From: Candidatus Bathyarchaeota archaeon B26-2
GTDB taxonomy: Archaea; Thermoproteota; Bathyarchaeia; Bathyarchaeales; B26-1
NCBI GenBank assembly: GCA_001593935.1
Contig: LUCE01000013.1
Span: 1-33,188, forward strand
DNA: 33,188 nt
Direction: 5' to 3'
Shown here: positions 2-14,120 of the stretch, piece by piece
Numbering within the stretch: position 1 is the first letter of the stretch
How the letters are laid out: every line of letters begins with the position of its first letter
Program-made: the position numbers and the translations under genes
The notes under the pieces: model-generated
Seen by the model: only the letters and a program-made list of their open reading frames with translations
Told to the model about the DNA's origin: nothing
Database searches by the model: none

Positions 2-1420
2 TTGTTAATTTTATGCACTGTTCTGAGCTGGCTTACGGTCGAGTCGTCGGCTTATACAGAGGGTCTCTCCACTAAAACTGTCACAGGCTCCCTCGGGCTA
101 CAAGGTGGCAGAGGAGGCGGGAACGTTTCTGAACCTCCCCTCTTCAACGTAACCTTGTTGATATCGGGTTCCGAAGGCGAGGAGCCCAACCTCCAAGGTT
201 TGAACGTTACAGTGTACGACTTGAACGGAACGGTCGTGGCTTACGGGCTTCCTAACAGCACGGGACACGTGAAACTGAGGTTGCCTGAGGGCGTATACAC
301 CGCGTCCGTCAACTATGGATATCGAGTTGTGGGCAGGAGGGAGATCAATGTCACAGGCTCCGGGTTCTTCACCGTCAATACATGGGTCTACAACCTGACG
401 GTTGAGTGTATAGACCTCAAGGGCAGACTTTTAGCAGACCACGTCGTTTACCTATACGATCAGATGATCTTCTACTCGCTGAACAACTTCACGGTCGTAA
501 CGAACCAGACCGGGCGTCTCGTCGGTTGGAACAAGACCCAGGCGGATGGGAGAACGGTCTTCAGAGGCTTGTGGAACGGAACTTATCTCGTAAGGGTTGT
601 GGGCGGCAAGGTAATTGGTGAGGAGCTGATCGACGTTCAGAAGTCGGAAGAGTTTGTCATCACATGCAACAAGACGGATATGGTGCTTAGGTTCGTCACA
701 ACCTCGAACAACCTGCTGGCGGGAGACCCGATTCCCAACGTAATGGTCCACGTGTACGATAGTGAAGGAAACACGGTCTTCAAAGAGTATACTAACGAAA
801 GTGGATACGTCGTCCGTAAGGGCATGTACGCCGGAGAGTACAGCATCTTCGCCGAGTGGGAAGGCGTGGAGATATGGTCAGGGATAATAGATGTATCCGG
901 AGACGAGGTTATCATCGAATGTCCAGTATACAGGCTCACCATCAGAGCCCTAGACCCCTCCGGTAACCCCATCCCGAACGCCGATGTGACGATAATCAGG
1001 ATGATCCGGAGATACCGTAGGTACATACGCGAAGTGATCTCAACTTACAAGACTGATGAGTTTGGTTACGTCTCGCTTCTTCTCCCCCAAGGCCGTTACG
1101 AGGTGCACTGCGCTTATGGAATCTATACGGGCTTAGTCGTCCTAGACTTGAATTACAACTCTAACGTGGAGGTACCCTGTAGCATAAACGCGGGGATGTG
1201 GTTCTCGACGTTCTTTGTGCCTCTACCCCTCTTGGTGTTGATATTCATCCTTGAGAGGAGAAAACTAAAGAAGCCGTTGGAGATGAGAAGGTATAGAACA
1301 ATGTTGAATAAACTTGAGAACCTTTACGAGAACGGTTTGGTCGAGTATAGGCTCTACCGTAAACTTAGGGAAGAGTACGAATCTAAGCTCATGGAGTTGG
1401 GCGGGAGGGAGATGAGGTGA
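2..1420 (+). CDS. Secreted, sequon-rich single-pass membrane protein with repeated Ig/carboxypeptidase-regulatory-like domains (5' partial)
   Basis: The reading frame is open to the left edge. Its first visible residues look like the hydrophobic part of a signal peptide, so the true start probably lies outside the window. About four beta-sandwich repeats of roughly 80-90 residues follow (near residues 47-125, 130-215, 225-300 and 305-390). Each has the pattern of a bacterial Ig-like or carboxypeptidase regulatory-like fold (a V-x-V-Y-D strand, a sequon turn, then a G-x-Y-x-V strand). I count 13 N-x-S/T sequons before residue 270, as expected for an N-glycosylated archaeal surface protein. One transmembrane helix lies near residues 399-418, followed by a basic stop-transfer stretch and a charged helical tail. 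The stop codon overlaps the GTG start of the next gene by three bases, so the two are probably one operon. No enzymatic motif is visible. A role as the surface partner of the downstream permease is inferred. Confidence 0.8.
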   Translation: MLILCTVLSWLTVESSAYTEGLSTKTVTGSLGLQGGRGGGNVSEPPLFNVTLLISGSEGEEPNLQGLNVTVYDLNGTVVAYGLPNSTGHVKLRLPEGVYTASVNYGYRVVGRREINVTGSGFFTVNTWVYNLTVECIDLKGRLLADHVVYLYDQMIFYSLNNFTVVTNQTGRLVGWNKTQADGRTVFRGLWNGTYLVRVVGGKVIGEELIDVQKSEEFVITCNKTDMVLRFVTTSNNLLAGDPIPNVMVHVYDSEGNTVFKEYTNESGYVVRKGMYAGEYSIFAEWEGVEIWSGIIDVSGDEVIIECPVYRLTIRALDPSGNPIPNADVTIIRMIRRYRRYIREVISTYKTDEFGYVSLLLPQGRYEVHCAYGIYTGLVVLDLNYNSNVEVPCSINAGMWFSTFFVPLPLLVLIFILERRKLKKPLEMRRYRTMLNKLENLYENGLVEYRLYRKLREEYESKLMELGGREMR

Positions 1421-4400
1421 AGACGTTCTGTAGGGTTTTCTCTCTAATGGTACTGACGATTCTCTTCTTATCAGCCGTGTATATCGTGGAGCCCTCGCTG
1501 GGCAAGTCGAATGAAGAGGACCTGACAGTGAACGTCTGGCTCGTTCTCCGCTTGAGAGACTACGAGACCGATATGCCCATCTCAAACGTGACGGTGAAGG
1601 CAAAAGTTTCATCGGCTTGGGGAAACGTGGAGATGCAGGAATCCACGAACGAGACCGGAACCATACAAGTCTTCGTCAGCAGCTTCACGCAGTCCTCCGA
1701 TGCGATAACAATTCCCAGAACGCCTCCAAGGCTCTACGAGCTCACGGTATGGGATAACTACACTGTTATAAAGATCAACAACGTCTTTATGGACGAGGTT
1801 AATTTTAAGGCCGGATACTGGTACCGGCCGAGTGTAGGGCTCGTAAACTGTACTACGTACTGGGATATGGCGGTCACCCTCAAATCGGAGGCCATGAAAA
1901 GCCAAATCTTTATAGAATGTGACGTCTGGGTTCTCAAGGGTAAACTCGTCAAGATCTCAGACTACAACCCGATCACCGATAAGAAGGAGAGCCTAGACGT
2001 TAAGCCGGCCGTTGAAGCGAACCTCGACGATGTGGAGGTGAGCCCCTACGAGAGTTACTACTTCTTCCCACTGAACTACAACGTGACCATACGTCCCGCT
2101 TCGAAGTACAATTTACTAACTGCAAAGATTCCATCGTTAGGTGTAAGGGTTGACGAGAACACCACCTTAATACACTGGATGTACTTCGCTGCGGAGTGGT
2201 ACATAAATGAGGAGGTATCGAGTCTAGGTGAGGAGTTGGAGTGGTTCAAGGCCCTAGGGCTTCCTCTCACACAAGAGTACGAGGAGTATAATGCCATAAA
2301 GAGCCATTTGGAGCGAGCGTTGAACCTTCTCTTACTAGAGGACTACGGCCCGGCTTTGGGAGGGATCAGACGCTCCATGGAGAGGCTGGGAAGCCTCCGG
2401 TCTTGGCTCTCAGACCAGAGGATGTATTCCGTACTGACCGCTATAAGCATCTGCCTCTTCGCTTATGGGCTTGCATCCTTAATTCCTAGGTTTATACTTG
2501 AGGAACGGGTTGGCAGAAGAGTTTTACTCACGAGCAAGATTCTGATCTTCTCGGCCTTCTTGGCGATCTTTTCCTTAACCCACTTTTCCTTCAAGATAAC
2601 CTACGCCAGCATGATCAGCGGAATGTTTGGTACTTCGATCATAGGTATAGATGTCCCTACAACCCTCTGGGGATGTTTTCTCCTAGGAACATCCATCTAC
2701 TTCTTCTTGACGTTGATGTCCCTTAGGAGAGCGGCAATCACAGACCTCTCCCTGCAGTTGGGGATAAGGGGATTAAAGAGAAGGGTCTCAAGGACGTTAC
2801 TGACCCTGATAACGATAACTATCATAGTCTCGTCAGCCATAATACTCGTCAACGTCTCCATCGCGAGAGCGTCGAGGGTTAAGGAGGCGTGGCCGGGAAC
2901 AGACCGTTCCGGCGTCATAATTCAAGCCAACATCTTAAAGGCGCCTCTAAGCGAATACGACGTGAATTGGACCCGCACCCAAGAATGGTGTGAGGATATA
3001 GGATACAGGGAGGAGATCGTACCGCTCGGAGAGCAGCTCACACGCTGGGGAATCCTAATTTACGGTGGACGGTCTATAACTGTTGAGATAATCGGAGTAG
3101 ACCCAGAGTTCTTGGAGAGGAATTACAACTTTTCGAGGTACGTTAGGGGAGTATGGTCGGAGTTCGTCGTTGGTGAACCCGTCGCCGTGGTCTCAAATGC
3201 GTTCGAGGTCCCGGTTGGAGATTATGTAACTCTGGGGGTTGGGGAGGCCGGAACGGGATCGTGGTGGGAGAGAGAGTTCGGGGAGTTCCGCGTCGTGGGG
3301 AAGTTCGATCCGTCTTCGCTCTTGAAGCTCGTCAAAGTGGATAATAACCCTCTCTTTGAGGAGACCTCCAACCTTGTGCTTGTCCCAATAAAGTCGATCA
3401 AGGACTATTCCATGGTAATCTCTGAGGCCACGGTGATCGTTAAGGAAGGGTTTGACCCCATGGAAGTAGCCAAGAAGATCGCTTACATACTCGGTGTGAC
3501 CACCATAGCGAACGTCAACGGCTTGGCCAAGAAGATCGAGTGGACCGTTGAGTGGACGGTGACTGGATTCTTCCCGTATCTATTCCCGCTCGTGATCGCG
3601 GGGATGATGGTCTACATAACGATGACCTCCATCTATGAGGAGAGGAAGAGAGAGGTGATGGTCATGGCGACTCTGGGACTCGACCCGAAGAACACCTTCC
3701 AAGTGTTTGTGATCGAGGCCCTCCTATTAGGGTTCCTAGGGACACTTTTAGGGTTCTTGGGAAGCTATCTGCTTGTTATAGCTCTTCAGTCCATGATCGG
3801 GATTCTGGCAATGGTCGGAACGCCCATCTCAGGGGAGATGGGCCTATCCACATATGTTCACTGGTCTCTACCCGCAGTTATGGTCGCAATCCTAACCGGA
3901 ACAATCATGACCTTCCTTGGAGCCTACGTGCCTGCCTCCAGAGCCCAAGGTTTAAGCCTCCTCGGCAGAGTCAAGAGGCGGAGACTCGTTGGGGAGTTCA
4001 TGATCGAGAAGGACACAGTCAGCCTCACACTTCCCTTGAGGGTTCCCATCCAGAGTAGCGACCTACTATACAGGTTCATAAGAGAGAACGTTGGGAAGTT
4101 CAAGTCCTCGATCGTCGACCCTCACTCAGTTAAGGGCGAGGTCCGTAGAGACGGAACCTTCACGGTCTCTTTCATAGTTAGGGAACCTGGCCGCTCGATC
4201 TTCATACCGTGTGAAGTGAAGGGCTTGAGGGAAGGCGACTCCATCATTCCGGTGGTGGAGTTCCCGGCAAAGTATAAGAGTTACGAACGGGTTAGACGCA
4301 TACTCCGCAGCCTAGAAGAGTACATGATCGGCTTCGCGGCCTGGAAGGATATGCAGAGAAAGATGAAGATAATCCGCGAGGCTCCGAAGAGGCGTAAGAC

Positions 4401-4800
4401 CCCAGAGGAGATACTGATCGAGGTTAAGGAGGTCATAAAGAGGATAAGAGACGATACCAAGAGGCTTAAGTTCCTCGAATCTAGGAAGTCCCAGCTCTCA
4501 GAGAACATCTACGAAGAGTTTAGGCAGAAGTACCTCAAGAGGATCGAGGATGAGACCAAGAAGATCAGGGCTTTGGCGATCGGCCTCGAATCCTACCACG
4601 ACGAACTGAACAAGGAGATAAAGAAGATAGAGGTCGAGATCGAGAGGTTCACGATCGCCTACAACCTAGGGGAGATAAACGAGGAGGAGTACGTGAAGAG
4701 ATGCGGACCGTTACAGGCGAGGCTCGACGTGCTGAGAAGCAAGTTTAGAGAACTCGAGGAGATCTTCGAGTTCCTCCGGATGCCTTCGAGGATGGTTTAG
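1417..4800 (+). CDS. Large FtsX-type ABC transporter permease with N-terminal ectodomain and C-terminal coiled coil
   Basis: The 1127-residue protein starts at a GTG overlapping the previous stop, behind a purine-rich GGGAGGGAGATGAG ribosome site. It has a signal peptide (about 1-29), then a first ectodomain (30-335) with six sequons. Seven predicted helices follow, near 336-356, 370-392, 415-435, 462-482, 717-740, 766-795 and 815-840. The last four, with the 483-715 ectodomain and the cytosolic loop YEERKREVMVMATLGL, are the FtsX/MacB permease core; that loop is the known coupling segment to the ABC ATPase. A cytosolic tail of about 280 residues ends in coiled coil (about 1000-1120). Typical FtsX permeases have four helices and about 400 residues, so the front ectodomain, three extra helices and the long tail are additions. 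No ATPase gene is in the window; one may lie upstream. The substrate is unknown; lipoprotein or lipid export, or mechanotransmission, are all possible. Confidence 0.85.
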   Translation: MKTFCRVFSLMVLTILFLSAVYIVEPSLGKSNEEDLTVNVWLVLRLRDYETDMPISNVTVKAKVSSAWGNVEMQESTNETGTIQVFVSSFTQSSDAITIPRTPPRLYELTVWDNYTVIKINNVFMDEVNFKAGYWYRPSVGLVNCTTYWDMAVTLKSEAMKSQIFIECDVWVLKGKLVKISDYNPITDKKESLDVKPAVEANLDDVEVSPYESYYFFPLNYNVTIRPASKYNLLTAKIPSLGVRVDENTTLIHWMYFAAEWYINEEVSSLGEELEWFKALGLPLTQEYEEYNAIKSHLERALNLLLLEDYGPALGGIRRSMERLGSLRSWLSDQRMYSVLTAISICLFAYGLASLIPRFILEERVGRRVLLTSKILIFSAFLAIFSLTHFSFKITYASMISGMFGTSIIGIDVPTTLWGCFLLGTSIYFFLTLMSLRRAAITDLSLQLGIRGLKRRVSRTLLTLITITIIVSSAIILVNVSIARASRVKEAWPGTDRSGVIIQANILKAPLSEYDVNWTRTQEWCEDIGYREEIVPLGEQLTRWGILIYGGRSITVEIIGVDPEFLERNYNFSRYVRGVWSEFVVGEPVAVVSNAFEVPVGDYVTLGVGEAGTGSWWEREFGEFRVVGKFDPSSLLKLVKVDNNPLFEETSNLVLVPIKSIKDYSMVISEATVIVKEGFDPMEVAKKIAYILGVTTIANVNGLAKKIEWTVEWTVTGFFPYLFPLVIAGMMVYITMTSIYEERKREVMVMATLGLDPKNTFQVFVIEALLLGFLGTLLGFLGSYLLVIALQSMIGILAMVGTPISGEMGLSTYVHWSLPAVMVAILTGTIMTFLGAYVPASRAQGLSLLGRVKRRRLVGEFMIEKDTVSLTLPLRVPIQSSDLLYRFIRENVGKFKSSIVDPHSVKGEVRRDGTFTVSFIVREPGRSIFIPCEVKGLREGDSIIPVVEFPAKYKSYERVRRILRSLEEYMIGFAAWKDMQRKMKIIREAPKRRKTPEEILIEVKEVIKRIRDDTKRLKFLESRKSQLSENIYEEFRQKYLKRIEDETKKIRALAIGLESYHDELNKEIKKIEVEIERFTIAYNLGEINEEEYVKRCGPLQARLDVLRSKFRELEEIFEFLRMPSRMV

Positions 4801-4831: not shown

Positions 4832-5515
4832 TTATATCATCCGGGTTATCTCTCTTATGCTTCTAGCGATCCTGTAGTCGTAGCCCTCCAGCATCTCGAG
4901 GTTAAGGTTTCTCCTCAAGACCAGGATGCATCTAAGCCCGGCTTCCTTGGCGCATAGGCCATCGAGCCAGTGGTCTCCGACGAGGACAGTCTCACAAGCC
5001 TTCACGCCCAGCAGCCCCATCATGTGGCGGGCGTGTATGGGGCTCGGTTTGGGTTCTTCGACGTCGTCTCTGGCCGAGATCGCGTCTACATAAGCTCTCA
5101 GACCGAACTTGGTCAGGGCTCTCTCCGCATATTCGTGGCAGCTCCTCGTCATGACGCCGATCTTTAGCCCCCTCTCCTTCAAGGCCTTTAGGGTCTCTTT
5201 AGCCCCTTCTATCGGTTTGGCTCCAACTAGGGATTCCAGCTCGGTGCGGTTCATTATCTTCGTCACTCCAGCCAAGATCGATCTTATCTCTTCTTCGGAG
5301 AGGCCTCTCCTATGCAAGTCTTCAACCGCTAGACGCGTTATCTCCATATTCAGCATGTTGGTGTTCAGGAGGCCCTCTGTAACCCCTACGCTCTCTAAGA
5401 AGGTTATTACCCTCTCCTTCATCTTCTTGAAGTCTATCTTCGAGTGGATTAAGGTCTCGTCGAGGTCGAAGATGACGGCCCGAACGGACATGAAGACACC
5501 GTGAGTGGGATTCAT
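4832..5515 (-). CDS. HAD-superfamily hydrolase (phosphoglycolate phosphatase-like)
   Basis: The 227-residue protein has all four HAD motifs. The nucleophile motif FDLDETL places Asp17 and Asp19, motif II is in VMTRS, motif III is the lysine in EEPKPSP, and motif IV is VGDHWLDG. The helical insert between motifs I and II indicates a C1-cap subfamily like Gph or PPase. The expected reaction is magnesium-dependent phosphate-monoester hydrolysis in the cytosol; the substrate cannot be read from sequence. Two starts compete. ATG at 5515 has GAGGAG seven bases upstream. ATG at 5491 (removing eight residues) also has a GGTG, and sits about 24 bases downstream of where a TATA-like element at 5536-5545 would start the transcript. 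The gene is convergent with the permease gene. Confidence 0.88.
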   Translation of the reverse strand: MNPTHGVFMSVRAVIFDLDETLIHSKIDFKKMKERVITFLESVGVTEGLLNTNMLNMEITRLAVEDLHRRGLSEEEIRSILAGVTKIMNRTELESLVGAKPIEGAKETLKALKERGLKIGVMTRSCHEYAERALTKFGLRAYVDAISARDDVEEPKPSPIHARHMMGLLGVKACETVLVGDHWLDGLCAKEAGLRCILVLRRNLNLEMLEGYDYRIARSIREITRMI

Positions 5516-5535
5516 CCTAGAACTCCTCGCCCGAG

Positions 5536-5545
5536 CTAGATAAAA
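5536..5545 (-). promoter_or_regulatory. TATA-like box for the HAD hydrolase gene
   Basis: On the minus strand the sequence CCTTTTATCT lies about 25-30 bases before ATG 5515, in an otherwise GC-balanced gap. This is the spacing expected for an archaeal TATA element of a leaderless or very short-leader transcript. No clear BRE purines were judged. Confidence 0.35.
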
Positions 5546-5554
5546 GGTTTTCCA

Positions 5555-5718
5555 TCAAGACTCTGTTCCCAGTCTCTTCGGCGTGAGGTAGAAGGTAGAT
5601 GCTGTCTGAGCCATCTTAGCCCTACGCTTCTTCACCTCAGCCGCTATGGCTGATTCCGATCTAGGATGACAGCCACCTTATACTCTGCGCTCTTACGTCT
5701 ATATCCTCTTGGAATTTT
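5555..5718 (-). pseudogene. Possible frameshifted remnant of a small protein gene
   Basis: The 201-base gap between tiaS and the HAD gene carries two partly overlapping minus-strand frames that read like protein. The first runs from the tiaS stop to about 5645 and contains YKVAVILDRN. The second ends at TGA 5555-5557 and contains SAIAAEVKKRRAKMAQTAS followed by FYLTPKRLGTES. A single added base near 5654 would join them into one sequence of about 55 residues rich in Lys/Arg, without stops. Neither half has a good start codon and ribosome site. I do not recognise a family. It may be a decayed gene, a sequencing frameshift, or chance. Confidence 0.25.
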
Positions 5719-7060
5719 ACGTGCTTGAGATGTATCCGTAAGGTATGACCTCGCCCATCCTGAATTCTCTAGGCTTCTTCTCTAGGCCGTACCTTGAGAG
5801 TGGCTTTGTGAGGTGCCTCTGAGACCGGGGCGAGGTCACGTAGAGGCCGGGCTTGAGTTCTCTCTCAACCTCGAAGCGTAGCTTCTTCATCCTAGGCTCA
5901 TGAAGGCCGCACCTTTTACATTCGAAGCCCTTATCCTTCCCGATGGACTTCATACGCTTCCCGCATCTTGGACAAAGGGGGTTCCTCAGGATTATGTGAG
6001 GCGTCAGCTCTAGGATCCTCAGCTTCTCGAGGTTTATCGTTAGGGGGTTCCTCGGCGAAGGAGGCCGAACTCCCCCGTGGACCTCTACTACATCTCCCAC
6101 CATAAGCCTCTTAGCGGCCTCGCGGAGGCTACCGGTCGGCTCGTAGGCTGCGCAGTCAACCCTGCCGCTTCGATCCCTTATCGAGAAGATGACGTGGCCA
6201 CCGGGAATTATCCTAGGCGCCTTGTCCACAATCCCTTGGACGACGACCGGGTTGTTGGGCCTAATATCTTTGATGGAGCCTACCCTCCTCAAGTGGGCGT
6301 CCGTCCCCTGATTGGTTCTGAATATGACCCAACGTTCGATCGGTTCCTCTGAACGCACGATCTCGTAGGCTCTCCTGAGAGTTTGCGGGTCTTCTCCTCT
6401 GATCCCGTAGAGTACGGGGTCGGGCCCCCTAGGGGTTATTAAGATGCGTCCCGTCTCCGGGTCGATGTTGTTGAAGGTCTTGTTTCCTGTCTCCCGGTCC
6501 ATCTCGAAGACTGAGGAGGCCACGATTCTTCTAGGCGTTCCCCTGTTCTCAAGCAGCCTATACGTTATTATCTCGTATGTGAAGTCTCCTCTCAAGAGTT
6601 CTCCTACGGCCGCCAGCCCCCCAACGATTCCACGCCCATCCTTAAACCCGAACGCCTCCCCCCCGAACCTTCTCAACAGTTTCAAAGCGGTCTTCATCTC
6701 AACTACTCCTTGAATAGCCTCCTTGGCGAAGGTCTCCACCTCACGTGGCACTTCTCTAAAGAAGAAGACTATTCCCGGCTCTGTTCCTTCATAGTCCAGG
6801 TCCGAGTTCTCCTCAACGGTCTCCACAACAGTCTCCTCTATCTCCTCGACGTCGGTTTCATTGCACTCTATCCTTAAGCAGAGAGCCCCGTTACCTCTTG
6901 TCTTCCAAGGAACGTTCGGGTTAAGCCGGATCAGGTTCGGGTAATCTATGAATCGGGCGCCCAGTTTGCGCAGTCTCTCGACGAGTAGGGCGGCAACGTA
7001 GGTTGTGCACCCCTTCCTAGGAGAGTCAGTATCGTCGAACCCTATATGCATCTTAAACAT
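5717..7060 (-). CDS. tiaS: tRNA(Ile2) 2-agmatinylcytidine synthase TiaS
   Basis: TiaS attaches agmatine to C34 of the CAU-anticodon tRNA(Ile2) using ATP, so that archaea read AUA as isoleucine. The N-terminus shows the family signature GFDDTDSPRKGCTTYV (residues 7-22), then the conserved block ending NPNVPWKTRGNGA. A central OB-fold occupies about residues 275-355, and a C-terminal zinc ribbon (CPRC near 364, CKRC near 384) matches the tRNA-binding end of the family. The length of 447 residues fits (about 420-450). ATG at 7060 or the second ATG three codons later could be used. A TATA-like TTTTTAATA lies about 35-40 bases upstream. The gene is single copy and cytosolic. Confidence is high because the active-site block is intact. 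Confidence 0.95.
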   Translation of the reverse strand: MFKMHIGFDDTDSPRKGCTTYVAALLVERLRKLGARFIDYPNLIRLNPNVPWKTRGNGALCLRIECNETDVEEIEETVVETVEENSDLDYEGTEPGIVFFFREVPREVETFAKEAIQGVVEMKTALKLLRRFGGEAFGFKDGRGIVGGLAAVGELLRGDFTYEIITYRLLENRGTPRRIVASSVFEMDRETGNKTFNNIDPETGRILITPRGPDPVLYGIRGEDPQTLRRAYEIVRSEEPIERWVIFRTNQGTDAHLRRVGSIKDIRPNNPVVVQGIVDKAPRIIPGGHVIFSIRDRSGRVDCAAYEPTGSLREAAKRLMVGDVVEVHGGVRPPSPRNPLTINLEKLRILELTPHIILRNPLCPRCGKRMKSIGKDKGFECKRCGLHEPRMKKLRFEVERELKPGLYVTSPRSQRHLTKPLSRYGLEKKPREFRMGEVIPYGYISST

Positions 7061-12791: not shown

Positions 12792-14120
12792 TCACTCGGC
12801 TGGCCTTTGAAGGAGTCTTCGGCCGCACCATCCGCAATATATAGCGTCGGCGGGGTTCTCGCTCCCACAGTAGGTGCATTTTTTAGCCCCGAGGTAGACT
12901 GGCGGCGTCTTTCTTCCCCTCTCATGGGCGCCAACTAGGATTATCAGAGCTATAGCACAGATGATCTCGGAGTAGATGACGAAAGCGGGAGACCTTAGTA
13001 TAACCTCGTGCTCAGGTACGGCTAGATGCTCCAAGTCTAGAATCAACTTGTAGTATATGTTCTTCTCCTTAGCCTCAGCCTCGGTCTCCCTCAAGGAGCC
13101 TATATAATCGGATGCCTCAGCCCCACCAATCCCTGTGGCGTTCCTGAAAACTAGGGTCGCTGGATTCCAGAGCACCGCCTCTGTTATCGCCTTCTTCGGG
13201 TCGTTTCTCAGCTCTATAGAATAAGACGACGTTAGATCACACGGTAGCCAACCCCAAGGGGGAATATAGACCATGGCCCATCCATGACCTATCACGTGAT
13301 GATACTCGTTATACTGGTGTCCACCCATCACGACTCCAGACCTATTGGCGTACGCTTCTTGGCGGAGATAGATCATACCCATCATGAGGAAAGACGGTAT
13401 CCCTTGCATCCTAAGCAGAGCTATGAGGAGATTGGACTGGTCGTCGCAGTCCCCGGTCCTGTTTCTCGCAGTCTCAACTGGGTATGTGGGTGATGCCGAG
13501 TGGTACGTTATGTGAGTTGCGATCCACTTGACGTCTTCTAAGACTATCTTTAAGACTCTCGTTTCGTTCCCGGCAAGTGTGGAGGCAACCTCGCTTAAGC
13601 TCATGTTGTAGTATCGGGTTTTGTTCCACGCATCGGTGTCTAAGCGGATGTCCGGAGGGCTCCACCAAGGGGCAACCTCCCTCGTGTAATTCCTCAAGGA
13701 GTCGGGTATACTCTCTAGACCTCCAGCATTCTCCAAGCTTATAATGGGCTTAGGTCTGTTGAAGCTCTCGATCTCCCAGACTATGGTGACCGTGTAAGAC
13801 TCGCCTCGACTGAGGGTCTCGGGGCCTTCGACCACGATTATAGGGTTTCCATCCCCGTCTTTTGAGATCGTGTACTTCCCGCTCACCTCGATGAGGCGCG
13901 CCCTCTGCCACGCTAGGTTGAGGAAGCCCTCCGTCGAGATTCCTCCGAACTTGATGGAACCGGTTCCACGATTCTCTACCGTGATAGTCTCAGTGTAACG
14001 GAAGAGGGCTTGAGGAACCTTCAGAGGTGGAAAGACCAGATAATAAGTTGAGGTTGCCCCGATGAGTATAACTGAGAGAACAGCCGCAGCAATCGTCCTC
14101 TTATACTTAGCGATCCGCAT
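12792..14120 (-). CDS. Membrane-anchored transglutaminase-like domain protein with C-terminal zinc ribbon
   Basis: The 442-residue protein has an N-terminal signal anchor (about 8-28). An extracellular region with seven or so sequons follows, with a beta-sandwich at about 40-120 and a transglutaminase/cysteine-protease core at about 205-315. The triad is visible as Cys near 224 in GDCDDQ, His near 279 in GHGWAMVY, and Asp near 294 in WLPCDL. A second helix (about 377-399) returns the chain to the cytosol, where CTYC and CGWC form a zinc ribbon (about 410-437). In this superfamily archaeal members are thought to be peptidases or amidases. An outward catalytic domain linked to an inward zinc ribbon suggests surface sensing or processing, which is inference. 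ATG 14120 has a minus-strand TATA-like ACTTATATTAATG about 45 bases upstream. Confidence 0.85.
   Translation of the reverse strand: MRIAKYKRTIAAAVLSVILIGATSTYYLVFPPLKVPQALFRYTETITVENRGTGSIKFGGISTEGFLNLAWQRARLIEVSGKYTISKDGDGNPIIVVEGPETLSRGESYTVTIVWEIESFNRPKPIISLENAGGLESIPDSLRNYTREVAPWWSPPDIRLDTDAWNKTRYYNMSLSEVASTLAGNETRVLKIVLEDVKWIATHITYHSASPTYPVETARNRTGDCDDQSNLLIALLRMQGIPSFLMMGMIYLRQEAYANRSGVVMGGHQYNEYHHVIGHGWAMVYIPPWGWLPCDLTSSYSIELRNDPKKAITEAVLWNPATLVFRNATGIGGAEASDYIGSLRETEAEAKEKNIYYKLILDLEHLAVPEHEVILRSPAFVIYSEIICAIALIILVGAHERGRKTPPVYLGAKKCTYCGSENPADAIYCGWCGRRLLQRPAE

What the first reader, a model, noticed from the sequence alone, without database searches (positions are those of the whole stretch)
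2..4800. Coupled surface glycoprotein and enlarged FtsX permease: possible new cell-envelope ABC system
Two overlapping genes encode a sequon-rich Ig-like surface protein and an FtsX permease carrying an extra ectodomain, three extra helices and a long cytosolic coiled coil. The FtsX coupling loop (YEERKREVMVMATLGL) is seen directly. The extra parts are not in standard MacB, LolE or FtsX proteins. The pair could form a mechanotransmission or export complex of the archaeal envelope.
Basis: partly seen in the sequence, partly recalled or inferred. Interest (0 to 1): 0.5.

Follow-up and report, generated by a model that had tools for sequence, protein, structure and literature searches.

The report
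Archaeal FtsX envelope operon, CdvA-like coils
Two window genes belong to a three-gene set, kept together across distantly related archaea, that probably links a sugar-coated surface protein to helical scaffold proteins inside the cell through an FtsX-type membrane machine with no ATP-using partner gene beside it.

Summary
The window starts at a contig end, so the surface-protein gene (B, 2-1420) lacks its first residues; the FtsX gene (C, 1417-4800) is intact. Relatives supply the missing upstream gene: not an ABC ATPase but a soluble coiled-coil protein (A, about 250-340 aa). A-B-C is intact in 14 of 14 loci in the class and 11 of 13 outside it where enough DNA is held, with C down to 20-28% identity. 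A motif scan found no ABC ATPase near any intact trio. C has a genuine MacB/LolE/FtsX-type core with its coupling helix, plus an extra ectodomain, three extra helices, a KA1-like domain and a coil. The C tail and A resemble archaeal CdvA (cell division) in fold and weakly in sequence, below Pfam's cut-off. A LolD-like ATPase without a permease beside it, at least 80% identical between families, occurs in 15 of 61 related genomes, including all 12 that carry C; in 10 of the 15 it lies beside a CdvA-like gene. Best reading: a type VII mechanotransmission complex powered in trans, coupling a CdvA-like scaffold to the surface layer. Trans powering and the division link are inferred.

The parts
2..1420 (+). 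Gene B: surface Ig/prealbumin-like repeat protein, 5' end cut by the contig edge
   Evidence: orthologs of 308-742 aa in the class and about 587-1523 aa (some cut) outside it
59..1186 (+). B ectodomain (residues 20-395): sequon-rich, poorly conserved, repeat number varies
   Evidence: 13 sequons against 3.25 shuffled; mean majority fraction 0.51
1187..1249 (+). B single membrane helix (residues about 396-416)
   Evidence: hydropathy in orthologs; alignment
1250..1417 (+). B cytosolic tail, helical-hairpin motif (GLVEYRLYRKLREEYESKL): the most conserved part of B
   Evidence: 17 of 56 columns invariant, mean majority fraction 0.80
1417..4800 (+). Gene C: enlarged FtsX/MacB-type permease, 1127 aa
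1522..2166 (+). C extra N-terminal beta ectodomain (residues 36-250)
   Evidence: model; least conserved part of C
2422..2736 (+). C three extra membrane helices (residues about 336-440)
2737..3963 (+). C FtsX core: membrane helix 1, MacB_PCD ectodomain, membrane helices 2-4 (residues about 441-849)
   Evidence: Pfam; Foldseek LolE E 1.2e-12; VIA Z 13-14.6 to HrtB, MacB, LolE
3634..3681 (+). Coupling helix YEERKREVMVMATLGL (residues 740-755)
   Evidence: conserved in all orthologs aligned
3988..4341 (+). C cytosolic domain, KA1-like in the model (residues 858-975)
   Evidence: VIA Z 9.0, 2.8 A over 98 residues to SAD-B KA1
4402..4779 (+). C CdvA-like coiled-coil hairpin (residues 996-1121), the most conserved part of C
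   Evidence: VIA Z 13.7, 3.0 A over 128 residues to S. islandicus CdvA; Pfam CdvA E 8e-4, below cut-off; 40 of 157 columns invariant for 971-1127

Best explanation
A, B and C are three parts of one membrane complex. C is a type VII (MacB/LolE/FtsX-type) mechanotransmission permease, probably a dimer. B is a single-pass surface glycoprotein whose repeats stand in or under the surface layer. A is a cytosolic coiled-coil protein that, with the tails of B and C, forms a CdvA-like helical scaffold on the inner membrane face. A shared LolD-like ATPase encoded elsewhere acts on the coupling helix of C, and the movement is passed to the ectodomains of C and B. The likely job is to couple an internal scaffold, perhaps at growth or division sites, to remodelling or anchoring of the glycoprotein envelope, as FtsEX does for bacterial cell walls. 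Shown: the conserved operon, the FtsX core with its coupling helix, no ATPase motif near intact trios, conservation concentrated on the cytosolic side. Inferred: physical complex, trans ATPase, CdvA relationship, place and time of action.
For: Operon A-B-C: 14 of 14 class loci with upstream DNA, mostly 4-base overlaps; 11 of 13 outside the class at 20-28% identity of C. A and C distances correlate, r 0.96 over 136 pairs (confounded by the species tree). C core. Coupling helix kept. Cytosolic ends most conserved. CdvA-like coil: VIA top hit CdvA for A (Z 12.0) and for the C tail (Z 13.7); deeper profiles CdvA2 to A E 1e-5, A to C tail 4e-6, CdvA2 to C tail 3e-5, B tail to A 1.3e-4, against 0.0039, 0.0049, 0.046 and 0.25 for reversed controls. 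Lineage ATPase at least 80% identical in 15 of 61 genomes, including all 12 with C; in the other genomes at most 54%; dN/dS 0.035 for it, 0.10-0.12 for C; it lies divergently 231-811 bases from a CdvA-like gene in 10 of 15; that gene family matches S. islandicus CdvA at 5e-14.
Against: No ATPase in the operon, and the lineage ATPase was not looked for in the 16 genomes outside the class. The co-occurrence rests on one set of related families (f1, f3, f9) and may be ancestry only; f9 genome G034, lacking both, is a single informative loss. CdvA similarity is below Pfam's cut-off everywhere in A and C, coiled coils match each other easily, and the tool warns that helical bundles reach Z about 13 by chance. 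In outgroups other coil families score about as well (Snapin, EzrA), and 3 of 7 outgroup A proteins show no CdvA hit at E 0.01. The trio is not linked to ESCRT-III genes except at about 20 kb on one contig each in G016 and G058. In G262 and G290 C has no A or B beside it.
Confidence: 0.42

Rival explanations
1. An ordinary type VII ABC system that extracts or exports a lipid, lipoprotein or peptide, like LolCDE, MacB or YbbAP, powered in trans. The coils only hold the parts together and have nothing to do with division.
For: The core fold is closest to LolE, MacB and HrtB. The N-terminal module adds a second ectodomain, in the same broad layout as YbbP, which has two (PMC12646458, passages seen). 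Many other large FtsX proteins exist in the same genome without the trio partners.
Against: No adaptor, carrier, lipoprotein or hydrolase gene was seen conserved beside the trio (by ORF layout, not every neighbour was annotated). Conservation peaks in the cytosolic tails rather than in the ectodomains. The N half shows no profile similarity to the FtsX half (E 0.2 and 0.4).
Confidence: 0.25
2. An ATPase-independent structural or mechanosensing complex: A has replaced the ATPase as cytosolic partner, and the FtsX core passes tension between the surface layer and the coil scaffold.
For: No ATPase motif near intact trios, while A is the constant neighbour.
Against: The ATPase-contacting coupling helix is kept in all orthologs shown, which is hard to explain without an ATPase. 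A lineage-specific LolD-like ATPase without an adjacent permease exists.
Confidence: 0.15
3. The CdvA resemblance and the ATPase co-occurrence are both coincidental: generic archaeal coiled coils, and shared ancestry of a few families. The trio is a conserved envelope complex of unrelated function.
For: All CdvA matches of A and C are below the curated cut-off. Co-occurrence is confined to three families. In one test the CdvA2 to A score (35.3) was beaten by 1 of 60 shuffles (36.4). The coil controls were few (6 sequences).
Against: Two separate models, A and the C tail, pick CdvA first among helical structures. Profile scores exceed reversed controls and, for CdvA2 to C tail, all 60 shuffles (40.0 against a best of 31.4).
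Confidence: 0.18

Closest known systems
FtsEX (bacterial divisome, type VII ABC)
   Same: FtsX-type core fold (VIA Z 12-13 to FtsX chains); would couple a cytosolic scaffold to an extracellular envelope factor without transport
   Different: C has an extra ectodomain, three extra helices, a KA1-like domain and a coil; no FtsE gene beside it; partners are B and A; NCBIfam FtsX_actino 9.3 of 250 bits
LolE/LolC and MacB
   Same: Best sequence and fold matches for the core
   Different: Far below the equivalog cut-offs; no lipoprotein or TolC-type partner seen; tail and N-terminal module are additions
YbbAP and BceAB (type VII with enlarged permeases)
   Same: Enlarged permease with extra helices; the YbbP topology with two ectodomains is read from passages of PMC12646458
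   Different: YbbP arose by duplication; here the N half shows no detectable FtsX similarity; the YbbP alignment (9ge7) spans only the core of C, 454-852
ADOP, duplicated orphan permeases of Acidobacteria (description recalled, no call)
   Same: Large FtsX proteins without an adjacent ATPase, in paralog families
   Different: One recognisable FtsX domain; 19.2 of 622.3 bits; conserved A and B partners
CdvA (archaeal cell division)
   Same: Three-helix coil fold of A's C-terminal part and of the C tail
   Different: Below the Pfam cut-off; no PRC-domain hit; encoded with membrane proteins

Membership tests
Type VII ABC permease (MacB/LolE/FtsX) | FtsX and MacB_PCD domains over curated cut-off | tested here: met
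   43.8 bits against 25.5 and 40.1 against 27
Type VII ABC permease (MacB/LolE/FtsX) | Four-helix core fold with ectodomain and coupling helix | tested here: met
Type VII ABC permease (MacB/LolE/FtsX) | Cognate ABC ATPase encoded beside the permease | tested here: not met
   no Walker A plus signature ORF in the trio loci
Type VII ABC permease (MacB/LolE/FtsX) | An ATPase acting on it, in cis or trans | tested here: inconclusive
   co-occurrence only
LolC/LolE (TIGR02212) | Equivalog score cut-off | tested here: not met
   44.6 of 362.45 bits
ADOP (TIGR03434) | Subfamily score cut-off; two FtsX domains | tested here: not met
   19.2 of 622.3 bits and one FtsX domain; N half against C half E 0.4
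CdvA (PF18822) | Coil domain over Pfam gathering score of 30 bits | tested here: not met
   window C 19.9; A 23.8 and 26.2; outgroup C up to 25.6
CdvA (PF18822) | PRC domain before the coil | tested here: not met
   no PRC match for A or C
CdvA (PF18822) | Three-helix coil fold | tested here: inconclusive
   VIA Z 12.0 (A) and 13.7 (C tail), within or near the range the tool warns about for helical bundles
CdvA (PF18822) | Polymerises and recruits CdvB | not testable with these tools
   needs biochemistry

The most novel reading that the evidence does not exclude
The trio is an archaeal counterpart of FtsEX built into a CdvA-type apparatus: the C tail and A co-assemble with CdvA-family filaments, providing the kind of membrane tether that the CdvA structure paper says is unidentified (PMC12818579, passages seen), and a lineage ATPase encoded beside a CdvA-like gene drives surface-layer remodelling through B at the division site.
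Probability: 0.18. Interest if true: 0.88.

Novelty: new variant of a known kind. Interest (0 to 1): 0.6.

Why it matters
How archaea without a peptidoglycan wall connect internal division or scaffold proteins to the glycoprotein surface is poorly known, and the CdvA structure paper speculates about unidentified membrane partners (PMC12818579). This is a specific, widely kept three-gene candidate, with its own ATPase candidate, that can be tested in a laboratory host.

Tried and rejected
Tandem duplication: I expected the N half (ectodomain plus three helices) to be a worn FtsX repeat as in YbbP. Profile comparison gave E 0.21 and, with deeper alignments, 0.4: not supported.

Adjacent ABC ATPase: looked for by Walker A plus signature motifs in the window and 24 other in-class loci, some of them the same place fetched twice, and in 16 out-of-class loci: none. 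The decayed locus L061 (G038), left out of that count, does have an ABC ORF (776-1522) about 3.6 kb from the remnant. The adjacent-ATPase FtsX genes seen in the home genome are other paralogs (C28, C44, C47).

OST1/ribophorin: an Asgard OST1 cytosolic domain came third for A (Z 10.0, 1.6 A over 72 residues). In PMC11417166 (passages) it is a four-helix bundle that binds ribosomes. I found no further support and left it as an alternative fold match.

Link to ESCRT-III genes: only a distance of about 20 kb on the same contig in G016 and G058; not used. PDB sequence search for A and the C tail: nothing significant. The 6-sequence coil control is too small to carry weight. The paper search for CdvA with FtsX gave one paper (PMC11237479, passages), which does not join them. 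Other paper searches; I saw only the listings of these unless a paper is named.

Full report
WHAT IS THERE. The window is contig C48 of the assembly from its first base. Gene B (2-1420) is open at its 5' end and gene C (1417-4800) overlaps it by four bases. B has prealbumin/Ig-like repeats (CarboxypepD_reg 5.8e-18), 13 sequons against 3.25 in shuffles, one membrane helix and a short cytosolic tail. C has an FtsX domain and a MacB periplasmic domain over their cut-offs, an extra ectodomain and three helices before them, and a cytosolic tail.

RELATIVES. A close relative is Bathyarchaeota archaeon B26-1: locus L067 has the same length and gene layout as L058, from the genome given as the same genus. 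Full-length orthologs of C at 43-66% identity occur in the home order. In the class, 18 of 256 genomes match the C tail at E 1e-4, two of them (G179, G092) weakly; gene A matches in 20 of 256, some weakly. In the phylum sample, 30 of 398 genomes match: 9 in the home order, 16 strong ones outside the class and 5 weak coil-only matches (G300, G376, G385, G450, G453), which I dropped. One scan of genome contigs found 10 loci, nine titled Bathyarchaeota and one titled uncultured archaeon; its two peptide patterns evidently missed the distant ones.

OPERON. In all 14 class loci with enough upstream DNA the order is A, B, C on one strand, mostly with four-base overlaps; in L048 B is split over two reading frames. 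Not counted: loci cut by contig ends (the window, L055, L058, L138), the decayed locus L061 and the divergent paralog L060. Outside the class I fetched all 16 strong loci: 11 have A-B-C (in one, A is a 64-residue piece at a contig end), 2 have B-C before a contig end, 2 (G262, G290) have C without A or B beside it, and 1 is a C fragment at a contig end. C there is 20-28% identical to the class orthologs, so the association is old. No ORF with Walker A and ABC signature motifs was found in these neighbourhoods; the decayed L061 has one about 3.6 kb away. In the home genome A itself was not found (only a weak match), most likely because the contig ends there.

ANATOMY. AlphaFold2 model of C: mean pLDDT 72, pTM 0.55. 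Its core (453-852) matches HrtB, MacB, LolE and FtsX (Foldseek LolE 1.2e-12; VIA Z up to 14.6). The 858-975 part resembles KA1 domains (Z 9.0). The 997-1124 part has CdvA of S. islandicus as its best match (Z 13.7). A (model of the L071 protein, mean pLDDT 81) also has CdvA first (Z 12.0, 2.5 A over 119 residues). The tool warns that helical bundles may reach about 13 by chance, so this is suggestive only. Sequence evidence: Pfam CdvA hits below the cut-off for window C (8e-4), for 2 of 4 A proteins at E 1e-4 and one more at 0.025, and for 4 of 7 outgroup A and 2 of 2 outgroup C at E 0.01. With profiles including outgroups, CdvA2-A, A-C tail, CdvA2-C tail and B tail-A give E 1e-5, 4e-6, 3e-5 and 1.3e-4; reversed controls give 0.0039, 0.0049, 0.046 and 0.25. 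In an earlier shuffle test CdvA2-A was exceeded by 1 of 60 shuffles, the other two pairs by none. CdvA2 is my name for a local CdvA-like family that matches S. islandicus CdvA at 5.3e-14.

CONSTRAINT. In C the coil is the most conserved part (mean majority fraction 0.75) and the extra ectodomain the least (0.54). In B the cytosolic tail scores 0.80 and the ectodomain 0.51. dN/dS among three close genomes is 0.10-0.12 for C and 0.18-0.25 for B, and 0.035 for the lineage ATPase in one pair.

THE ATPase. The home genome has a LolD-like ATPase on C56 with no predicted membrane protein among its nearest neighbours (L150). Orthologs at least 80% identical occur in 15 of 61 genomes: G000, G001, G002, G004, G010, G016, G022, G026, G030, G038, G042, G046, G050, G054, G058. 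All 12 genomes carrying C (G038's copy is decayed) are among them. A second paralog (60-66%) is listed for 13 of the 61, partial in G000 and G001, often 1-3 kb from the first. Outside the 15 genomes the best identity listed is 54%. G034, in the same genus as several carriers, lacks C and the ATPase but keeps a CdvA-like gene. In 10 of 15 genomes the ATPase lies 231-811 bases from, and divergent to, the CdvA-like gene, in several with a PadR-like gene between. This fits one engine serving several permeases: in the home genome 10 FtsX proteins were seen, 3 with an ATPase beside them (C28, C44, C47) and 4 (C14, C29, C61, C63) without one in the stretches read; C8, C21 and the window gene lie at contig ends. 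It is correlation within related families, not proof.

DIVISION CONTEXT. Of the same 61 genomes, 42 match FtsZ and 55 match ESCRT-III-like Snf7 at E 1e-3 (one weak match in the home genome). PMC12818579 (passages) reports that CdvA filaments do not bind membrane in vitro and speculates about unidentified tethering partners. Nothing here shows that A or C is at the division site.

VERDICT. A real, old, three-gene envelope system with a known core and new attachments: a new variant of type VII ABC systems. The division link is the bold reading, at 0.18.

Noticed in passing
L131:2560-4911, L132:3054-4940, L133:5499-7736, L134:1-2046: The A-type coil also occurs fused to the C-terminus of PMT_2-like mannosyltransferase membrane proteins (L131 by Pfam; L132 by similar sequence) and of DUF362 proteins (L133, L134), suggesting a reusable membrane scaffold module.
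   Followed up: partly
L139, L140 (G026:C6:66001-106000): A cluster of giant FtsX proteins (about 1530-1570 aa; the one checked carries an M28 peptidase domain) next to 9-13 helix membrane proteins and 2-helix proteins, one with an IgGFc-binding match.
   Followed up: no
L154 about 4040-4670 (G000:C36): The second LolD-like ATPase paralog is frameshifted in the home assembly; decay or assembly error is not known.
   Followed up: no
L065:6413-7318 (G000:C28): A LolD-like ATPase beside a 977-aa FtsX protein carries its own C-terminal helical-looking extension with the same kind of turn (FRAGIIDGDEYVRRR).
   Followed up: no
L061 about 5107-5773 (G038:C21); L135 about 5543-6458 (G054:C9): Decayed remnants: pieces of A and C with stops in G038, A interrupted by a stop in G054.
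   Followed up: no
L145:8461-9090, L186:5849-6565, L187:8202-8834, L190:8366-8989: A small FtsX protein of about 210-240 aa lacking the ectodomain, near the ATPase genes in three genomes and elsewhere in the home genome.
   Followed up: partly
L060 (G002:C131): A divergent second B-C pair: B about 27% and C about 30% identical to the window's.
   Followed up: no
window 12792-14120, strand -: Membrane protein with a transglutaminase-like motif (GDCDDQS) and a C-terminal zinc ribbon, read by eye from the translation.
   Followed up: no
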